Source of the DNA: Flavobacteriia bacterium
GTDB lineage: Bacteria; Bacteroidota; Bacteroidia; Flavobacteriales_D; Crocinitomicaceae
Assembly (NCBI GenBank): GCA_947450325.1
Contig: CANFUT010000006.1
Location: 62,001-126,000 of the forward strand
Reading direction: 5' to 3'
Length of the DNA: 64,000 nt
Of the stretch, positions 9,327 through 16,551 are shown piece after piece. A model generated the notes under the pieces. That model had not been told where the DNA came from. It searched no databases and was given only the letters and a program-made list of their open reading frames with translations. Numbering within the stretch: the stretch's first letter is position 1; each line of letters opens with the position of its first letter. Position numbers and translations under genes: made by a program.

Positions 9327-10463
9327 TTATAGTAATTTAGCAACATCTCTTCCAACAACATTCCCAATCGCAACGCCCATTCCGCCCATTCTGACTCCCA
9401 CTGCAATATTTGGTTTTACCAGTTCAATTATTGGCTTTTTAGTTTTGCCAACTCCCATGATTCCTGACCAAGCATACTCTATTTCAAAAGCTGTATTTGG
9501 TAAAATAATTTCCTTTAATAATTTTTCCAATTGATTCAATATGATGTCAGAATTTTTGATTTCAGTAGTTGTTTCTCCTTTAAAATCTAAATTTCTTCCC
9601 CCACCAAAAAGTACTCGATCATGAATATTTCTGAAATAATAATAGCCTTCTTGGTAATGAAAAGTACCTTTGAAAGGCAGATTTTCAATCTTTTTGGTAA
9701 TGATAACTTGTGCTCGGGCGGGTAAAATGTCGTCTTTTGGTAGAAATCTTTGCGCAAATCCATTCACACAAATCGCCACTTTGGAAGCGTAAAATTTCCC
9801 GATGTTTGAGTCAATTTCAACCTTGTTTTCCATTGAATGAAGTTCTAAAATATCAATCCCCGTCAACAAATGGATCTCATTCTCAGCCAACAACTGATTA
9901 AATTTCACCATCATTTTTCCGGTGTCAATCTGACCTTCCAATTTATTGTAAAAGCCTGATTGAATTCCATTAAAACCAAACTTTTCTTTTATATTTTTAT
10001 CTAAAGAATAAACATTTTGAACCCGAGTAATTGCTTCAATTTTTCCATTTAAATAAGGCAAAAGTTCTATGCATTTTTGCAAAGTTGCATTTTCGTCATT
10101 TCTAATTAAATCCCAAGAACCCAACCCTTGAAAATCCAAATTTGAGTCGCCAATCATTTCTCTCAAATATTGCAATCCTTCCCAACGATTTGAAACCGTT
10201 TCCCAAACTTCGTTTTCCGACATTTTTGACAAATCATCTATCAATTCTGTCACACTCCCAAAACAGGCAAATCCAGCGTTTTTGGTACTTGCTCCAGCAG
10301 GCAAAAAGTTTCTTTCAACGACCAAGATTTTAGCAGTTGGATATTGTTTTCTAAGATGTAGAGCGGTACTCGAACCAACAATTCCTGCTCCAATCACAAG
10401 AAAATCCAATTCCTCGAAATAGGTCTTTTTTTCCCAATAACTTAATTGTTCTAGTTTTAGCAT
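9327..10463 (-). CDS. FAD-dependent oxidoreductase (D-amino acid oxidase/glycine oxidase superfamily)
   Basis: 378 residues. The dinucleotide-binding motif is I-G-A-G-I-V-G-S-S (Gly25, Gly27, Gly30), followed by an acidic strand end (V-V-E-R-N) and G-A-S-T-K-N-A-G-F-A, as in DAO-family flavoproteins. The last 35 residues (YAWSGIMGVGKTKKPIIELV, then VGVRMGGMGVAIGNVVGRDV) form the second FAD contact. It probably oxidises a C-N bond of an amino acid or amine in the cytoplasm; the substrate cannot be read from sequence. It converges on the glycosyltransferase with a 7-base gap and no terminator hairpin between them. Confidence 0.88.
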   Translation of the reverse strand: MLKLEQLSYWEKKTYFEELDFLVIGAGIVGSSTALHLRKQYPTAKILVVERNFLPAGASTKNAGFACFGSVTELIDDLSKMSENEVWETVSNRWEGLQYLREMIGDSNLDFQGLGSWDLIRNDENATLQKCIELLPYLNGKIEAITRVQNVYSLDKNIKEKFGFNGIQSGFYNKLEGQIDTGKMMVKFNQLLAENEIHLLTGIDILELHSMENKVEIDSNIGKFYASKVAICVNGFAQRFLPKDDILPARAQVIITKKIENLPFKGTFHYQEGYYYFRNIHDRVLFGGGRNLDFKGETTTEIKNSDIILNQLEKLLKEIILPNTAFEIEYAWSGIMGVGKTKKPIIELVKPNIAVGVRMGGMGVAIGNVVGRDVAKLL

Positions 10464-10563: not shown

Positions 10564-13500
10564 ATGCTAGATATGAAACGTTTTTTACTATTATTTCTCC
10601 TTATAAGTAGTTCTTTTTCTGTCATTTGTCAAGTTCAAGTTGATATTGATATAATGGCAAAAGATTTGAAATTGGGCAAAAAAGAAGCTGGTGTAACCGT
10701 TCGTGTTTACGAAGGCTCAAAAGTTGTTGCTTCAGGTGTTACAGCAGCTAGTGGTAAGGTTTTATTGAATGTTCCTTCAGAAAAGACTTATAAAGTCGAA
10801 ATTTCTAAAGCAGGAAAAGTAACCAGATTTGCAACGCTAAATACAGGTAAAATTGATGTTGAATTATTGCAAGGAGCTTCAAATCCTTTGATGTATTTTG
10901 AAGTAAACATGTTTGATGAAACGCCAAATGTCGACTATTCTTATATTAAAAATACCGCCATCACTGAGTTTTATTTTGATGGTAAAAATCCAAAATTGGC
11001 CTACAATGTAAATGCTTCCTCTAAAATGGAGAAAGAAGTTGACAAAGCAATTGCTGCAGCTCAAAATGCATCGGGTAATGTTGAAGCGCAATTTCAAGCA
11101 AAAATGCAAGAAGCTGAAGCTTTAGCTACTCAGAAAAAATATGCGGATGCAGCCAAGAAATTTGAACAAGCTTTGTTTTTCAAGCCAACAGATAAAGTTG
11201 CCAATAAGCGATTAGCAGACATGGATGCGTTGGTAAAAGCGGACAAAGTTACGCAATTGGATGGTCAAGCCTTGAACAGTGAATTTGATAATTTAGTTAA
11301 AGCTGCTGAGATTTTAAAAGGTCAGAAAAAATGGCAAGAAGCAATTGATAAATACGAAGAAGCGCTAGAAAAGAAAGATGATCAAGCAGTTAGCGATGAA
11401 ATCGATGACTTGATGGCGATTATCAAAAAAGAAAAGAAAGAAAAAGACAATGAAACAGCCTACACAAATGCAATGGCTGCAGCTGAAGGTTTGTTAAAAC
11501 AAAAAAGTTATCAAGCAGCGCTAGATCAATACGTTCTTGCTTTAAAAGCAAAGCCAGCAGATCCAATTGCAACTAAGAAAAAAGGTGAAGTTGAATCGCT
11601 TATTAACGCGTCAAAAGGAGAAGCAGAAAAGAAGAAAAATTACGAGTTAGCTGTTGCAGCTGGAGACGAATTATTTAAAGCTGAAAAATGGAATGATGCA
11701 AAAGCTAAGTATGACGAAGCATTGACCTTTCAACCTATTTCAACCTATGTTTCTGGTCAATTGAATACCATAAAAACTAAGTTGGATGAAATTGAAAAAG
11801 AGAAGCAAAAAGTTCAACAAATTGCTGGATTAATTGCAGAAGGAACTACTGCAATGAATGCAAACCAATGGGATTTAGCAAAATCTAAATTTGAGGCTGT
11901 TCAAAAAGTAGATGCACAAAATCCGACTGCGATTGAAAAATTAAAAATCATCAATGCAAAAATTGAAGAGAATAAACTCAATGCAGCTAATGATGCCGCT
12001 TTCAAGAAATTTGTTGAAGAAGGTGATGCCTTAGTGAAAACAGTAAAATATACTGAAGCTGTTGCAAAATATGAGGAAGCGATAAAATTGAAATCCGATG
12101 CTTCGGTAGATAAGAAGATTGCTGATGCAAAACTGGAAATTGAAAAAATCAAGAACCAAAAAGAGACCAAAGAAAAGTATGATTTGGCGATGAAAGATGG
12201 CGAGGTAGCTTTACTTGCAAATAAATTAGAGGATGCTAAAGTTAAATTCACTGAAGCAAAAAATCTAGATGATAAAGCGCAATTGCCAAAAGATAAATTG
12301 AAAATTGTCGAAGATAAGATTTTAGCTGAAGAAAATAAAAAAATGGCTTCTCAGAAATATACTGAAGCCATGGCAAGCGGAGAAAAATTATATGGTGAAG
12401 GAAAATTAGTAGAAGCAAGAGCTGAGTTTTTCAAAGCCAAAGATTTTGATAAAACACAAACTGCTCCCGACACAAAAATAAAATTGATTGATGATCAATT
12501 GAAAATAGATGCTGCGAACAAGGAAAAAACGGAAAAGTACACTGCTGCAATGAAAGCAGGTGATGAATTTAGAGGAACAGGGAAATTGACCGAAGCAATC
12601 GCAGAATATAAAAAGGCCAAAGTCATTGACGGTTCAAAACCTGAACCTGATTCTAAAATCAAAGAAGTGGAGGCTGAAATGTTGACACAAGCGGATGCAA
12701 AAGCCCAAAAAGAAAAAGCTGACAAGTTTAATGCTGCGATGAAAGCAGGCGATGATTTTAAGGTTACAGGAAAATATACTGAGGCAATCGCTGAATATAA
12801 AAAAGCGAAAGTGATTGATGGTTCAAAAACAGAGCCTGATACAAAAATCAAGGAAGTTGAAGCTGAAATTTTAACACAAGCTGATGCAAAAGCCCAAAAA
12901 GAAAAAGCTGACAAATTTGCTGCAACAATGAAAGCAGGAGATGAATTTAGAGGAACAGGAAAATTGACAGAAGCTATTGCTGAATACAACAAGGCAAAAT
13001 TAATTGATGGAACCCAAACTTCACCAGATACTAAAATCAAAGAAGTTGAGGCACAAATCTTAAGTGAAAAAGAAGCCAAAAGCAAAAAGGAAATCGCTGA
13101 CAAGTACAATGCTGCCATGAAAGCAGGAAGCGATTTCAAACTTGCAGGAAAGTTGACAGAAGCAAGAGCTGAATATGTTAAAGCGAAAGACATTGATGGA
13201 AGTCAATCTGAACCAGACAAGAAAATTTCAGAAATTGACAATGAATTAGGAACTCAAGCAACACTTGCAGAAAAGAAAAAGCAAATTGATGCTTTGATAA
13301 AAGAAGGGATAGATTTAGAAAGTAAAAATGAATTAGAAAATGCTAAATCTAAATATTCAGCTGTGCTTCAGATAGACGATAAGAATGCAGAAGCAATCAA
13401 AAAAGTGGCTGAATTGAATAAAAAGATAGAAGCTGAAAATTCACAAAAAGCAAAAGATAATCAATTTACAACCTTAAAATCCCAAGGATTGGAAGCTTTC

Positions 13501-16500
13501 AATAAAAGCAAGTGGGAAGAGTCAAAAGGTTTTTATACAGATGCAAAGAAAATAAAAACAGATCCTGAAATTGAACAGAAATTAAAAGACATCGAAGTCA
13601 AAATTGCTGAAGAAATTGCTTTGAAAAGTGCAGATGCGCAATACAATGATTTAATTTCCGAAGCTGGAAAATTGGAAGCTTCTAAAGATTACGACGGAGC
13701 AATCAAAAAATACAAAGAAGCTTCATTGAAAAAACAAAATGAAAAATTGCCAAAAGATAAAATCGAAGAAATTGAAGGACTAAAGAAAATCGCAGCAGCA
13801 CAAAAAATCATTGATGACAATTACAATGATAAAATGAAAAAAGGAAGCGATGCATTTGCTGCAGAAGATTATCCTCTAGCAATTAAATTCTTCAATGAAG
13901 CAAATGGAATCAAACCAACGGAAAAAGAACCTGTCGATAAAGCGGAACAAGCTAGGCTAAAATACGAGGCGCAAAACATTGATTTCAAAATCAAATATGA
14001 AAAAATGTTGGTAGCTGCTCAAAGTGCCATCGATGAAAAAAATTGGGATAAAGCAATAGATTTATATAACCGAGCTTTGGTGATCAAAAAAGACGATCCT
14101 CTTCCAAAATCAAAATTAGTTGAGATCGAAAACGCCAAAAAAGCGGAAGAAGAAAGTAAATTGGCACAAGCGCAAATTGATAAAAATTACAATATCAAGA
14201 TGAGTGAGGCAGAAGCTGCTGTTAAATTAAAAGAATTTGACAAGGCAATAAACCTATTCACAGAAGCCAAAAAACTGAAACCAGCAGAGACTTTGCCAGA
14301 CACGAGAATTTCAGATGTTAATAATTTGAAATCAAATATTTTGAATAGTGCTAAAATTGAAGAGGCATACAAAAAGGCGATTTTAAGTGGAGACGAAGCT
14401 GTAAGATTGAAAGAATATGACCGCGCAATTTCAGAGTACAACAATGCTTTGAATGCAAAACCAGGTGACAAAACAGCAGCAAGTAAAATTGACGAAGTAG
14501 AACAAATAATAGATAATCTTACAAATACTGCTAAGCAACAAAAACAGAAAGAAGAATTTAATGCATTGGTAAAGACGGCTGATAATTATTTCAAATCTTC
14601 AGATTGGGCGAATGCAAAAAGCACCTACAATGAAGCGCTATTATTGCAAAAAGATGCATACGTTTCAAGTCAAATTAAAAAGTGTGAGGCAAACGATAAA
14701 GCACACACTGAAATTGAAGCCAAATACAAAAAGGTAGTTGACGATGCAGATGATAATTTCAATAAAGGTGATTACATTAAAGCGAAAGAACTTTATACAA
14801 AAGCTTTAACGATCAAAAAAGATGACGAATATCCAAAACAAAAATTGGATCAAATTGAAGGGATTCTGAATCCGAAAATTGTTCAAACTGGAACTTTACC
14901 TGTTCTAGGAACCCCAAGTAATAATTCAGTTTTGGAAGGTGAAGCGCTTCTTGCCAAAGCGGATGCGCAAAGAAAAAATTTGGTTACCACCAAGATGAGT
15001 GAAGAAGTGAAATCTCAACAAGAATTGGTAACGTCTAGAACTGAAGACAGAAATGAAGTAAATCTGTCAATGACAACCGGAATTCAAGAAATTGAAAAAC
15101 AACGCACAATCAATGCTCCTTCTGATGATGAGAATCGTTTGAATATGGTAACTGACGTTTTTGAAAAATCAAAAAACCTTGAGAAAAAAGCAACTGTTGA
15201 AAACAACTATGAAAATGGAGAATTTGTTGATTTGCAAAGTAAAGTCCTAGCAGAAAAACAAACTGTAGATCAAAATTATATTGAAAAAGAAGATGTTTAC
15301 AACATAAATACAAGCACATTGAAAATCTCGACTTTGGCTTTGGATGATAAACTTAGAAAAGATGTAAATGATGTCTACAAGACAAATCTTTCTTCTCAAA
15401 TTGTTTTGAATGGTGCAGTAATAAAAGTTTCTGAGAATACATTCGATGATTTAGAAGCAAGAAAAGTTACCGAGGTTGATGTTCGAACAGCTCAAAGATC
15501 AATTAACAAAATTGAAGATGAACGATATGTAGTTGCTTTCGAAAAATCAAACGGTATCAGCAATGAAGTAATTAAACAAAACAGTATTAAAAACAAGAAC
15601 GACGAGGAAGATTCTAAAATTGCAGCAGCAAATAAAGAAGATTTGAAATTAGTTGAGAATAATATCTTAGACAAGGACTTTAAGACATTCAACAAAAATG
15701 TTCAATCAAATTATGAAACTGAAACGAAGCTAGACAATGAGCGAGTTGAGTTAAGCAATACAAATGTTCAAAGAGATGATAATCGCTTAGCAGATGTTGA
15801 AGCAATTGAAAAAGGAAACAGTGAATTGGCTGAAAAAAGCAGAAATGAATTTAATAACCTTTTTGTAAAATCTTTGAAAAATCAGGAAAGTCTTTCCAAC
15901 GAGAAAAAGGTGAAAGATGGTGAAGTTATCGTGTCGACTGAAAAACAACAAGTAGATTACAATGTGATTTCAAACGTTGATAAAAAACTGAGATTACAAG
16001 GTGATGAGGGTACAATTGGTGACGAAAAACAACGGCAAGATGCTACAGCTAAATTGTCTACTGAAATGGTAAATTCTACTGTTGCGAATGCGAAAAATGT
16101 AGAGAAACCAAATGAAAATAAAGAGATTTTAAATAAATCGGATGTAATAAGTAATGAGAAAGACAACGCTGAACAAGCTAAACAAGTCGAGAAAAATTAC
16201 AATGCCAGAAAAATCATTGATCAGATAGAAAGTAAAACGGTTAAATTCGATGAAGCCGCTGCAAATGAATTAGGTTCAGCTTACCCAGAGGGCGTTTCTC
16301 AAGAATCGTTTAATCAAAATGGTAACGATGGTTTATTGGTTGCAATTGTTACACGTAGAATTGTGGTTAATAACGGACATGGTAGCATTTACGTCAGAAA
16401 ACAAACTTTGACAGGAATAACGTACTCTAAAAATGGGGATCCTTCCACAGAGTATATTTGGCAGAAAGAAACCGCTGACGGTAAACTAAAAAAGAATTAT

Positions 16501-16503
16501 TAA
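10564..16503 (+). CDS. Giant exported repeat protein (1979 aa) with TPR-like helical repeats
   Basis: The N-terminal signal peptide may begin at the ATG at 10564 or the in-frame ATG at 10573. Residues about 25-110 resemble a carboxypeptidase-regulatory-like beta-sandwich (GVTVRVYEGSKVVASGVTA, then GKVLLNV). Residues about 170-1440 are some twenty helical repeats of roughly 45-63 residues carrying a recurring A-x-K-Y-x-E-A-x-x-x-K pattern, like divergent TPRs. Residues about 1450-1895 are polar and probably helical or disordered. The last 80 residues form a distinct module with V-V-N-N-G-H-G-S-I-Y-V-R. There is no catalytic motif, OmpA domain or T9SS signal. A periplasmic or envelope scaffold is the best inference; function is unknown. 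It is monocistronic with its own terminator. Confidence 0.9.
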   Translation: MLDMKRFLLLFLLISSSFSVICQVQVDIDIMAKDLKLGKKEAGVTVRVYEGSKVVASGVTAASGKVLLNVPSEKTYKVEISKAGKVTRFATLNTGKIDVELLQGASNPLMYFEVNMFDETPNVDYSYIKNTAITEFYFDGKNPKLAYNVNASSKMEKEVDKAIAAAQNASGNVEAQFQAKMQEAEALATQKKYADAAKKFEQALFFKPTDKVANKRLADMDALVKADKVTQLDGQALNSEFDNLVKAAEILKGQKKWQEAIDKYEEALEKKDDQAVSDEIDDLMAIIKKEKKEKDNETAYTNAMAAAEGLLKQKSYQAALDQYVLALKAKPADPIATKKKGEVESLINASKGEAEKKKNYELAVAAGDELFKAEKWNDAKAKYDEALTFQPISTYVSGQLNTIKTKLDEIEKEKQKVQQIAGLIAEGTTAMNANQWDLAKSKFEAVQKVDAQNPTAIEKLKIINAKIEENKLNAANDAAFKKFVEEGDALVKTVKYTEAVAKYEEAIKLKSDASVDKKIADAKLEIEKIKNQKETKEKYDLAMKDGEVALLANKLEDAKVKFTEAKNLDDKAQLPKDKLKIVEDKILAEENKKMASQKYTEAMASGEKLYGEGKLVEARAEFFKAKDFDKTQTAPDTKIKLIDDQLKIDAANKEKTEKYTAAMKAGDEFRGTGKLTEAIAEYKKAKVIDGSKPEPDSKIKEVEAEMLTQADAKAQKEKADKFNAAMKAGDDFKVTGKYTEAIAEYKKAKVIDGSKTEPDTKIKEVEAEILTQADAKAQKEKADKFAATMKAGDEFRGTGKLTEAIAEYNKAKLIDGTQTSPDTKIKEVEAQILSEKEAKSKKEIADKYNAAMKAGSDFKLAGKLTEARAEYVKAKDIDGSQSEPDKKISEIDNELGTQATLAEKKKQIDALIKEGIDLESKNELENAKSKYSAVLQIDDKNAEAIKKVAELNKKIEAENSQKAKDNQFTTLKSQGLEAFNKSKWEESKGFYTDAKKIKTDPEIEQKLKDIEVKIAEEIALKSADAQYNDLISEAGKLEASKDYDGAIKKYKEASLKKQNEKLPKDKIEEIEGLKKIAAAQKIIDDNYNDKMKKGSDAFAAEDYPLAIKFFNEANGIKPTEKEPVDKAEQARLKYEAQNIDFKIKYEKMLVAAQSAIDEKNWDKAIDLYNRALVIKKDDPLPKSKLVEIENAKKAEEESKLAQAQIDKNYNIKMSEAEAAVKLKEFDKAINLFTEAKKLKPAETLPDTRISDVNNLKSNILNSAKIEEAYKKAILSGDEAVRLKEYDRAISEYNNALNAKPGDKTAASKIDEVEQIIDNLTNTAKQQKQKEEFNALVKTADNYFKSSDWANAKSTYNEALLLQKDAYVSSQIKKCEANDKAHTEIEAKYKKVVDDADDNFNKGDYIKAKELYTKALTIKKDDEYPKQKLDQIEGILNPKIVQTGTLPVLGTPSNNSVLEGEALLAKADAQRKNLVTTKMSEEVKSQQELVTSRTEDRNEVNLSMTTGIQEIEKQRTINAPSDDENRLNMVTDVFEKSKNLEKKATVENNYENGEFVDLQSKVLAEKQTVDQNYIEKEDVYNINTSTLKISTLALDDKLRKDVNDVYKTNLSSQIVLNGAVIKVSENTFDDLEARKVTEVDVRTAQRSINKIEDERYVVAFEKSNGISNEVIKQNSIKNKNDEEDSKIAAANKEDLKLVENNILDKDFKTFNKNVQSNYETETKLDNERVELSNTNVQRDDNRLADVEAIEKGNSELAEKSRNEFNNLFVKSLKNQESLSNEKKVKDGEVIVSTEKQQVDYNVISNVDKKLRLQGDEGTIGDEKQRQDATAKLSTEMVNSTVANAKNVEKPNENKEILNKSDVISNEKDNAEQAKQVEKNYNARKIIDQIESKTVKFDEAAANELGSAYPEGVSQESFNQNGNDGLLVAIVTRRIVVNNGHGSIYVRKQTLTGITYSKNGDPSTEYIWQKETADGKLKKNY
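12175..13290 (+). repeat. Tandem repeats inside the giant protein gene
   Basis: Six successive units begin with a K-Y/F-x-x-A/T-M motif at 12175, 12355, 12535, 12724, 12913 and 13102. The first steps are 180 nt (60 codons); the last three are exactly 189 nt (63 codons). Units 3-6 share A-M/T-M-K-A-G-D-x-F, then G-K-L-T-E-A-I-A-E-Y and a D-T-K-I-K-E-V-E-A-like segment, and units 3-5 are the closest to each other, implying recent duplication. Unit boundaries are approximate. Confidence 0.88.
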
Positions 16504-16521
16504 GATTCAATAATCATTAAG

Positions 16522-16551
16522 AAAAAGGCAAAGTCAACTTTGCCTTTTTTT
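16522..16551 (+). terminator. Terminator after the giant repeat protein gene
   Basis: Perfect 12-pair stem (16522-16533 with 16538-16549), loop TCAA, followed by T's. Confidence 0.9.

What the first reader, a model, noticed from the sequence alone, without database searches (positions are those of the whole stretch)
10564..16503. 1979-residue exported repeat protein of unknown role
It is by far the largest gene here, combines a carboxypeptidase-regulatory-like domain, about twenty divergent TPR-like repeats, a long polar region and a separate end module, and has no catalytic motif, OmpA domain or T9SS signal. It is single-gene with its own terminator. A periplasmic scaffold that spaces envelope parts would fit, but this is inference.
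Basis: partly seen in the sequence, partly recalled or inferred. Interest (0 to 1): 0.6.

Follow-up and report, generated by a model that had tools for sequence, protein, structure and literature searches.

The report
Exported dumbbell-shaped rod protein, Bacteroidia
This gene encodes a very long, exported, rod-like bacterial protein whose two end domains are conserved across much of the class Bacteroidia while the helical rod between them changes in length and even in kind; it probably tethers or spaces two partners in or on the cell envelope, but nobody seems to have described its function.

Summary
The gene is real: 10564-16503, 1979 aa, largest in the window, single copy, with its own terminator. 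It is a member of an apparently undescribed family in the class Bacteroidia. Each member has an exported N-cap (CarboxypepD_reg-like beta domain plus a conserved stretch), a helical rod, and an ~80-aa C-cap that has no Pfam, NCBIfam or PDB match. The C-cap is always within 13 residues of the C-terminus (85/85), and 78/85 of these proteins also carry the N-cap.

The rod is the surprise. Here it has 21 units of 60 residues (a TPR hairpin plus a long helix), predicted at pLDDT 90-97 to be an extended rod and not a TPR superhelix. Relatives have 0-25 TPR units, with or without the 54-residue array or A/K/E-rich helices. A divergent FAD-oxidoreductase neighbour marks the same locus in 32 genomes, where the rod goes from 25 TPR units to none. 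So the rod behaves as an exchangeable spacer and the caps as the conserved function.

The most likely role is an envelope tether or scaffold. Location and partners are not shown. A simple radial periplasmic spacer is doubtful, because the straight rod would be about 80 nm. New variant of a known kind.

The parts
10564..16503 (+). whole gene, 1979 aa, exported rod protein (start may be Met4, 10573)
10564..10629 (+). signal peptide (residues 1-22), type I style; the Cys of 'SVICQ' is not conserved, so no lipobox
   Evidence: relatives end in A/G-x-A/G-Q at this place; inference from sequence, no SignalP run
10630..10860 (+). N-cap first half: CarboxypepD_reg-like beta-sandwich (residues 23-99)
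   Evidence: strands in the model at residues 45-98, low confidence
10861..11091 (+). N-cap second half (residues 100-176), conserved D(F/Y)S-x-(L/I/V)...P(I/V) stretch, fold unresolved
11092..14871 (+). rod 1: 21 units of ~60 aa (residues 177-1436), each a TPR hairpin with a long third helix that runs on into the next unit
12543..13199 (+). 189-bp tandem repeat, 3.5 copies (units ~9-12): recent duplication in the middle of the array
14872..14931 (+). hinge between the arrays; it leads into a conserved 'LG-x-P...D.S...G.ALL..A..QRK' stretch that runs on to about residue 1472
14932..16173 (+). rod 2: ~410 aa, N/D/E/K-rich, 54-residue period without indels (residues 1457-1870)
   Evidence: helical in the model but low confidence
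16258..16500 (+). C-cap: ~80-aa conserved C-terminal domain, no Pfam/NCBIfam/PDB match
16520..16551 (+). intrinsic terminator, 14-bp stem followed by T7
9327..10463 (-). divergent neighbour: FAD-dependent oxidoreductase (DAO family), conserved in this position across the class; marks orthologous loci

Best explanation
It is a secreted 'dumbbell' protein. Two conserved end domains, an N-cap and a C-cap, are held apart by a long, stiff helical rod. The rod is a spacer that evolution lengthens, shortens and replaces by other helical material, while the end domains keep the function. Most likely the protein tethers or spaces two conserved partners in the cell envelope, as a structural scaffold. 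Shown: the gene, the modules, the repeat periods, the coupling of the caps, purifying selection and rod exchange at a syntenic locus. Supported by prediction only: the extended shape of rod 1 and the helicity of rod 2. Inferred: that both caps bind partners, and that the role is structural and lies in the envelope.
For: Rod 1 has 21 units of 60 aa and is modelled at pLDDT 90-97 as alternating 39-aa and 14-aa helices. Single units superpose on a TPR hairpin plus capping helix (Hip 4j8e 61 residues at 3.0 A, 7kal_F 2.5 A, Cyp40 3.0 A), but many-unit superpositions give 32-75 A rmsd and TM ~0.1, so the array is extended. Across 40 relatives the N part (~177 aa) is constant and, in most of the window's own family, so is the tail (542-548 aa), while units vary 2-25. 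Of 85 complete C-cap proteins, 78 also have the N-cap and all end within 13 residues of the C-cap; rods are TPR60, 54-aa array or A/K/E-rich helix. At the locus marked by the divergent DAO gene (32 of 32 upstream and divergent) rods run from 25 TPR units with no A/K/E helix to 0 units with 409 residues of A/K/E helix. dN/dS is 0.01-0.12 in all mature segments where dS could be estimated, rods included. Carried by 237 of 245 genomes of its own order.
Against: No binding partner, no location and no phenotype is known. Units keep positional identity within the genus (units 1-7 and most of 15-21 match their counterparts), more than an inert spacer needs, so some units may bind something. The C-cap fold was not resolved. 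Rod length varies so widely that no fixed gap can be what is measured.
Confidence: 0.5

Rival explanations
1. A cell-surface stalk or fibril: the protein is displayed outside the outer membrane, one cap anchors it and the other is presented at a distance, like the variable-length stalks of periscope proteins and fibrillar adhesins.
For: Predicted straight length ~80 nm for rod 1 (37-45 A per unit from the six-unit superpositions and helix geometry; the three-unit ones give higher values) exceeds usual periplasm widths (general knowledge). Rod length is very variable with fixed ends, which is the periscope principle (PMC8201768). The C-cap is strictly terminal, as a dedicated sorting or anchoring domain would be.
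Against: No T9SS sorting-domain model matches. The C-cap is tied to one N-cap and not spread over many cargo proteins. CarboxypepD_reg domains of PorE-like proteins are periplasmic (PMC5053529).
Confidence: 0.27
2. A periplasmic TPR chaperone or assembly platform: the grooves of the units bind client proteins and the length reflects many binding sites.
For: Units resemble the C-terminal TPR plus capping helix of co-chaperones (Hip, Cyp40, FKBP52, AIP). Individual units are conserved by position within the genus.
Against: In orthologous loci the TPR units are lost altogether in favour of A/K/E-rich helix (L157), and in other paralogues too (L155, L159). Six units do not form a continuous groove in the model.
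Confidence: 0.13
3. A core component of type IX secretion or gliding, comparable to PorE or SprE/PorW.
For: The genome has SprA, and PorE too is exported and contains TPR and CarboxypepD_reg domains (PMC5053529).
Against: No beta-propeller, OmpA domain or lipoprotein signal. In 148 class genomes SprA is in 143, whereas only 76 of these are listed with a C-cap: most T9SS genomes without a C-cap do without this protein.
Confidence: 0.05

Closest known systems
TPR and capping-helix modules of co-chaperones (Hip, FKBP52, Cyp40, AIP)
   Same: one 60-residue unit superposes at 2.5-3.2 A over about 60 residues
   Different: here the capping helix is continuous with the next unit, 21 times, giving an extended rod; co-chaperones have one such end
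Spectrin-type rods
   Same: topology as predicted: helix-turn-helix bundles joined by long helices that run from one unit into the next, extended rod (inference from the DSSP string)
   Different: 60-residue and not 106-residue units, TPR-type hairpin, no sequence match to spectrin models, bacterial and exported
PorE (PG1058) of the type IX secretion system
   Same: exported Bacteroidota protein with TPR and CarboxypepD_reg modules (PMC5053529)
   Different: PorE is a lipoprotein with TPR, beta-propeller, CRD and a C-terminal peptidoglycan-binding OmpA domain; none of propeller, OmpA or lipobox is present here
Periscope proteins of Gram-positive bacteria (PMC8201768)
   Same: fixed functional ends, rod of variable repeat number
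   Different: helical and not beta domains, repeats mostly ~35% identical and not near-identical, strain-level length variation not tested, no cell-wall anchor
TolA-type long A/K/E-rich helices
   Same: some relatives have such a helix as rod (L155, L157, L159)
   Different: type I signal peptide and CarboxypepD_reg cap in place of the TolA membrane anchor; other C-terminal domain

Membership tests
Tetratricopeptide repeat proteins | match to the TPR helix-turn-helix motif | tested here: met
   TPR_2 93.9 bits, TPR_11 81.3 bits over the cut-offs; unit-level superposition 2.5-3.2 A
Tetratricopeptide repeat proteins | 34-residue tandem units that stack into a right-handed superhelix | tested here: not met
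   unit is 60 residues; multi-unit rmsd 32-75 A, TM ~0.1 against TPR superhelices. Based on a predicted model
CarboxypepD_reg (PF13620) | Pfam match above gathering score | tested here: inconclusive
   20 bits against 32.3 for this protein; all 14 family N-caps match, best 2.6e-11
PorE of T9SS | beta-propeller plus C-terminal OmpA_C-like domain | tested here: not met
   no WD40/PD40 or OmpA family at E <= 1
PorE of T9SS | lipoprotein signal | tested here: not met
   Cys near the cleavage site is not conserved in relatives; sequence reading only
T9SS cargo | type A or type B C-terminal sorting domain | tested here: not met
   no sorting-domain model in NCBIfam at E <= 1 for the last 100 residues
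Periscope proteins | long arrays of near-identical repeats whose number varies between strains | tested here: inconclusive
   only units 9-10 are 84% alike, most pairs ~35%; number varies between species; strains not available
Periscope proteins | surface display | not testable with these tools
   needs shaving or microscopy
Spectrin repeats | Pfam spectrin match, ~106-residue three-helix unit | tested here: not met
   no spectrin family among Pfam matches, 60-residue unit
N-cap/C-cap rod family defined here | C-cap at the extreme C-terminus together with the N-cap | tested here: met
   78 of 85 complete C-cap proteins, including this one

The most novel reading that the evidence does not exclude
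A class-wide, undescribed envelope system in which one exported protein with two dedicated end domains bridges partners across tens of nanometres, with the bridging material freely replaced in evolution (60-residue TPR rods, an exact 54-residue helical array, A/K/E helices) at the same chromosomal locus. The TPR form would be a spectrin-like rod, a way of stacking TPR hairpins with no solved counterpart found here.
Probability: 0.35. Interest if true: 0.75.

Novelty: new variant of a known kind. Interest (0 to 1): 0.58.

Why it matters
In the window's own order this protein is present in 237 of 245 genomes and is often one of the largest exported proteins, yet no database model names its function and its C-terminal domain is in neither Pfam nor NCBIfam. 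If it is a tether, it gives a direct handle on how Bacteroidia envelopes are held together or decorated. The natural swap of rod types is a ready-made experiment on what a spacer must provide. The N-cap/C-cap signature lets many proteins now called 'TPR protein' or similar be recognised as one family.

Tried and rejected
1) Order-specific C-cap: a first profile from own-order sequences (A1) found it only in the own order (3 of 296 genomes). This was wrong. Relatives found through the TPR array showed the same C-cap, and the widened profile (A5) finds it in 189 of 396 class genomes. The phylum sample adds only one marginal hit (E 6.7e-4, a frame with two stops, same class), so no convincing hit lies outside the class.
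2) N-cap search over the phylum: mostly generic CarboxypepD_reg domains, not informative.
3) Function from neighbours: the DAO oxidoreductase (PF01266), ApbE or mutL/rhomboid neighbours suggest no envelope pathway; I use DAO only as a synteny marker.
4) Function from T9SS co-occurrence: SprA is in 143/148 genomes whatever the C-cap, so it does not discriminate.
5) C-cap and rod 2 structure: the model with three sequences is too poor (mean pLDDT 44.7); not searched.
6) Weak hits set aside: TraC, SycD/LcrH (TPR cross-matches far below cut-off), 40S ribosomal S4 (E 0.91), CHU_0125 OmpA (CRD part only, 26 against 620 bits).
7) Fibre or scaffold papers on this architecture: no hits.

Full report
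THE GENE. The ORF is 10564-16503 on the + strand, 1979 residues, single copy in a 3.4-Mb genome and the largest in the window. A 14-bp-stem terminator with a T run follows the stop at 16520-16551, and the upstream neighbour is divergent (9327-10463), so it is most likely transcribed alone. Start codons: L002 begins at the fourth residue of the window's ORF, so Met4 may be the start. A type I-style signal peptide is seen in nearly every complete relative, ending in A/G-x-A/G-Q; the window's Cys there is not conserved.

ANATOMY. Residues 23-99 are a CarboxypepD_reg-like domain: below Pfam's cut-off for this sequence, but matched by all 14 relatives tested. Residues 100-176 are a conserved stretch of unknown fold. 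Residues 177-1436 hold 21 contiguous units of about 60 residues. In 16 of 27 relatives no shuffle in 300 reached the lag-54 value; in the window alone the signal is modest, with 16 of 300 shuffles reaching it at some lag. Hydrophobicity has its main period at 3.60 residues, which is 54/15, as an average over relatives; the window alone has no clear peak. Residues ~1899-1979 are the C-cap, with consensus LG..YPEGVT.E......G.....RRIVV.G.G..Y.K......Y.KNG..ITE..W..ET. It has no credible Pfam, NCBIfam or PDB match.

SHAPE. AlphaFold2 on residues 1-538, with the window, L002 and L003 and with further units of the same proteins aligned in register, gives pLDDT 90-97 for most of the units: long helices of 39 residues (274-312, 334-372, 394-432, 454-492) alternate with 14-residue helices. 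So each unit is a TPR hairpin followed by a helix that continues as the first helix of the next unit. Single units superpose on TPR-plus-capping-helix segments at 2.5-3.2 A (7kal_F, 4j8e, 1ihg, 4apo), while superpositions over several units have rmsd of 32-75 A and TM-scores near 0.1. Treating units as collinear points, these rmsd values imply 37-45 A per unit over six units and about 50 A over three. Helix geometry gives about 37 A (25 residues x 1.5 A; inference). Twenty-one units would be about 80 nm if straight. Rod 2 and the C-cap were not resolved (mean pLDDT 44.7, mostly helical).

THE FAMILY. A full-length search finds relatives in 56 of 59 relatives' genomes. In the own order a C-cap profile hits 237 of 245 genomes and all 60 genera. 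My first conclusion, that the C-cap is order-specific, was wrong: a search with the TPR array across the class gave proteins of 900-1965 residues with the same N-cap and C-cap, and the widened profile finds the C-cap in 189 of 396 class genomes, in nearly all members of some families and none of others, with no convincing hit outside the class. Among 85 complete C-cap proteins, all have it within 13 residues of the C-terminus and 78 carry the full N-cap; of 84 proteins with a full N-cap, 77 carry the C-cap. Part of this set was found by full-length or TPR similarity. Of those fetched by C-cap alone (L149-L167), 21 of 22 complete proteins have the N-cap (counted).

THE ROD IS EXCHANGED, THE ENDS STAY. 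In the own order the N part is ~177 residues up to the first unit and the tail 542-548 residues in most of the window's family, while units vary from 2 to 25. Outside the order the 54-residue array recurs in L125, L127 and L129, and is missing in L121-L124, L126, L128, L130, L136, L139 and L140. Other relatives have up to 779 residues of A/K/E/D/Q/R-rich helix and no TPR unit (L155, L157, L159). A divergent DAO-family gene sits upstream in 32 cases out of 92 C-cap genes, always upstream and divergent, in the own order and in families f77, f88 and f91. At that marked locus the rod runs from 25 TPR units (L042) through 19-23 (L121, L123, L130, L136) to 3 units plus 447 residues of A/K/E helix (L156) and 0 units plus 409 (L157). 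These are orthologous loci by synteny, so the rod material itself has been replaced.

SELECTION AND GROWTH. Between window, L002 and L003 every mature segment, rods included, has dN/dS of 0.01-0.12 where dS could be estimated; dS is saturated in some. Units keep their position: units 1-7 match units 1-7 of L036 (24 units) and units 15, 16, 20 and 21 match its units 18, 19, 23 and 24, while the window's units 9-12 are tandem duplicates (84% identity between 9 and 10; 189-bp DNA repeat at 12543-13199). The array grows in the middle.

MECHANISM. Conserved ends that travel together, a rod that may be any extended helical material, and purifying selection fit best a protein that holds two partners at a distance or links them: an envelope tether or scaffold. 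Shown: modules, co-occurrence of caps, rod exchange, selection. Inferred: that both caps bind partners, and that the place of action is the envelope. Periplasm and outside are both open. The ~80-nm estimate and the wide range of rod lengths argue against a spacer that sets the periplasmic width, and leave a surface stalk as the main rival. A role as core T9SS part is unlikely: SprA is in 143 of 148 class genomes, of which only 76 are listed with a C-cap. PorE, the closest known protein by parts list, has TPR, propeller, CRD and OmpA domains (PMC5053529) and is not this.

NOVELTY. TPR hairpins, CarboxypepD_reg domains and variable-length rods are known. Their combination, the 60-residue continuous-helix stacking, the exact 54-residue array, the unnamed C-cap and the rod replacement at a fixed locus appear undescribed in the libraries and papers searched. 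I therefore call it a new variant of a known kind.

Noticed in passing
window 9327-10463 and L002, L003, L039-L074, L121, L123, L130, L136, L156, L157: A DAO-family FAD oxidoreductase (PF01266, matching no equivalog model above cut-off) is divergent from the rod gene in 32 of 32 cases where it is a neighbour, across several families of the class; its own role and the reason for the linkage are unknown.
   Followed up: partly
L152 5410-5967, L153 788-1372, L154 788-1324 with the two downstream ORFs: In one family, three-gene clusters hold a ~180-aa protein with the N-cap alone, then a ~410-440-aa and a ~560-640-aa N-cap/TPR/C-cap protein: possible partners or a heteromeric form.
   Followed up: no
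L092 4055-4840, L093 3174-3938, L094 3096-3944, L096 3275-4021: Small (250-280 aa) exported proteins with one TPR unit and the C-cap but no N-cap, in a conserved gene neighbourhood next to a LysR-type regulator; a minimal C-cap protein suited to structure work.
   Followed up: no
L042-L060 and others, gene downstream of the rod gene: ApbE (FAD:protein FMN transferase) lies directly downstream, same strand, in 18 loci of the own family; in the window's genus mutL and two tandem rhomboid proteases take that place.
   Followed up: no
window 11901-12251, 12495-13193, 14187-14471 minus strand: Long reverse-strand ORFs inside the repeat array are by-products of the repetitive, A/K/E-rich coding sequence and not genes (my reading).
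   Followed up: no
L047 and L062 (genome G005): In one genus the rod protein exists as two genes: 1200 aa with an A/K/E-rich rod and 680 aa with signal peptide, 2 TPR units, the 54-residue-type tail and the C-cap but no N-cap.
   Followed up: partly
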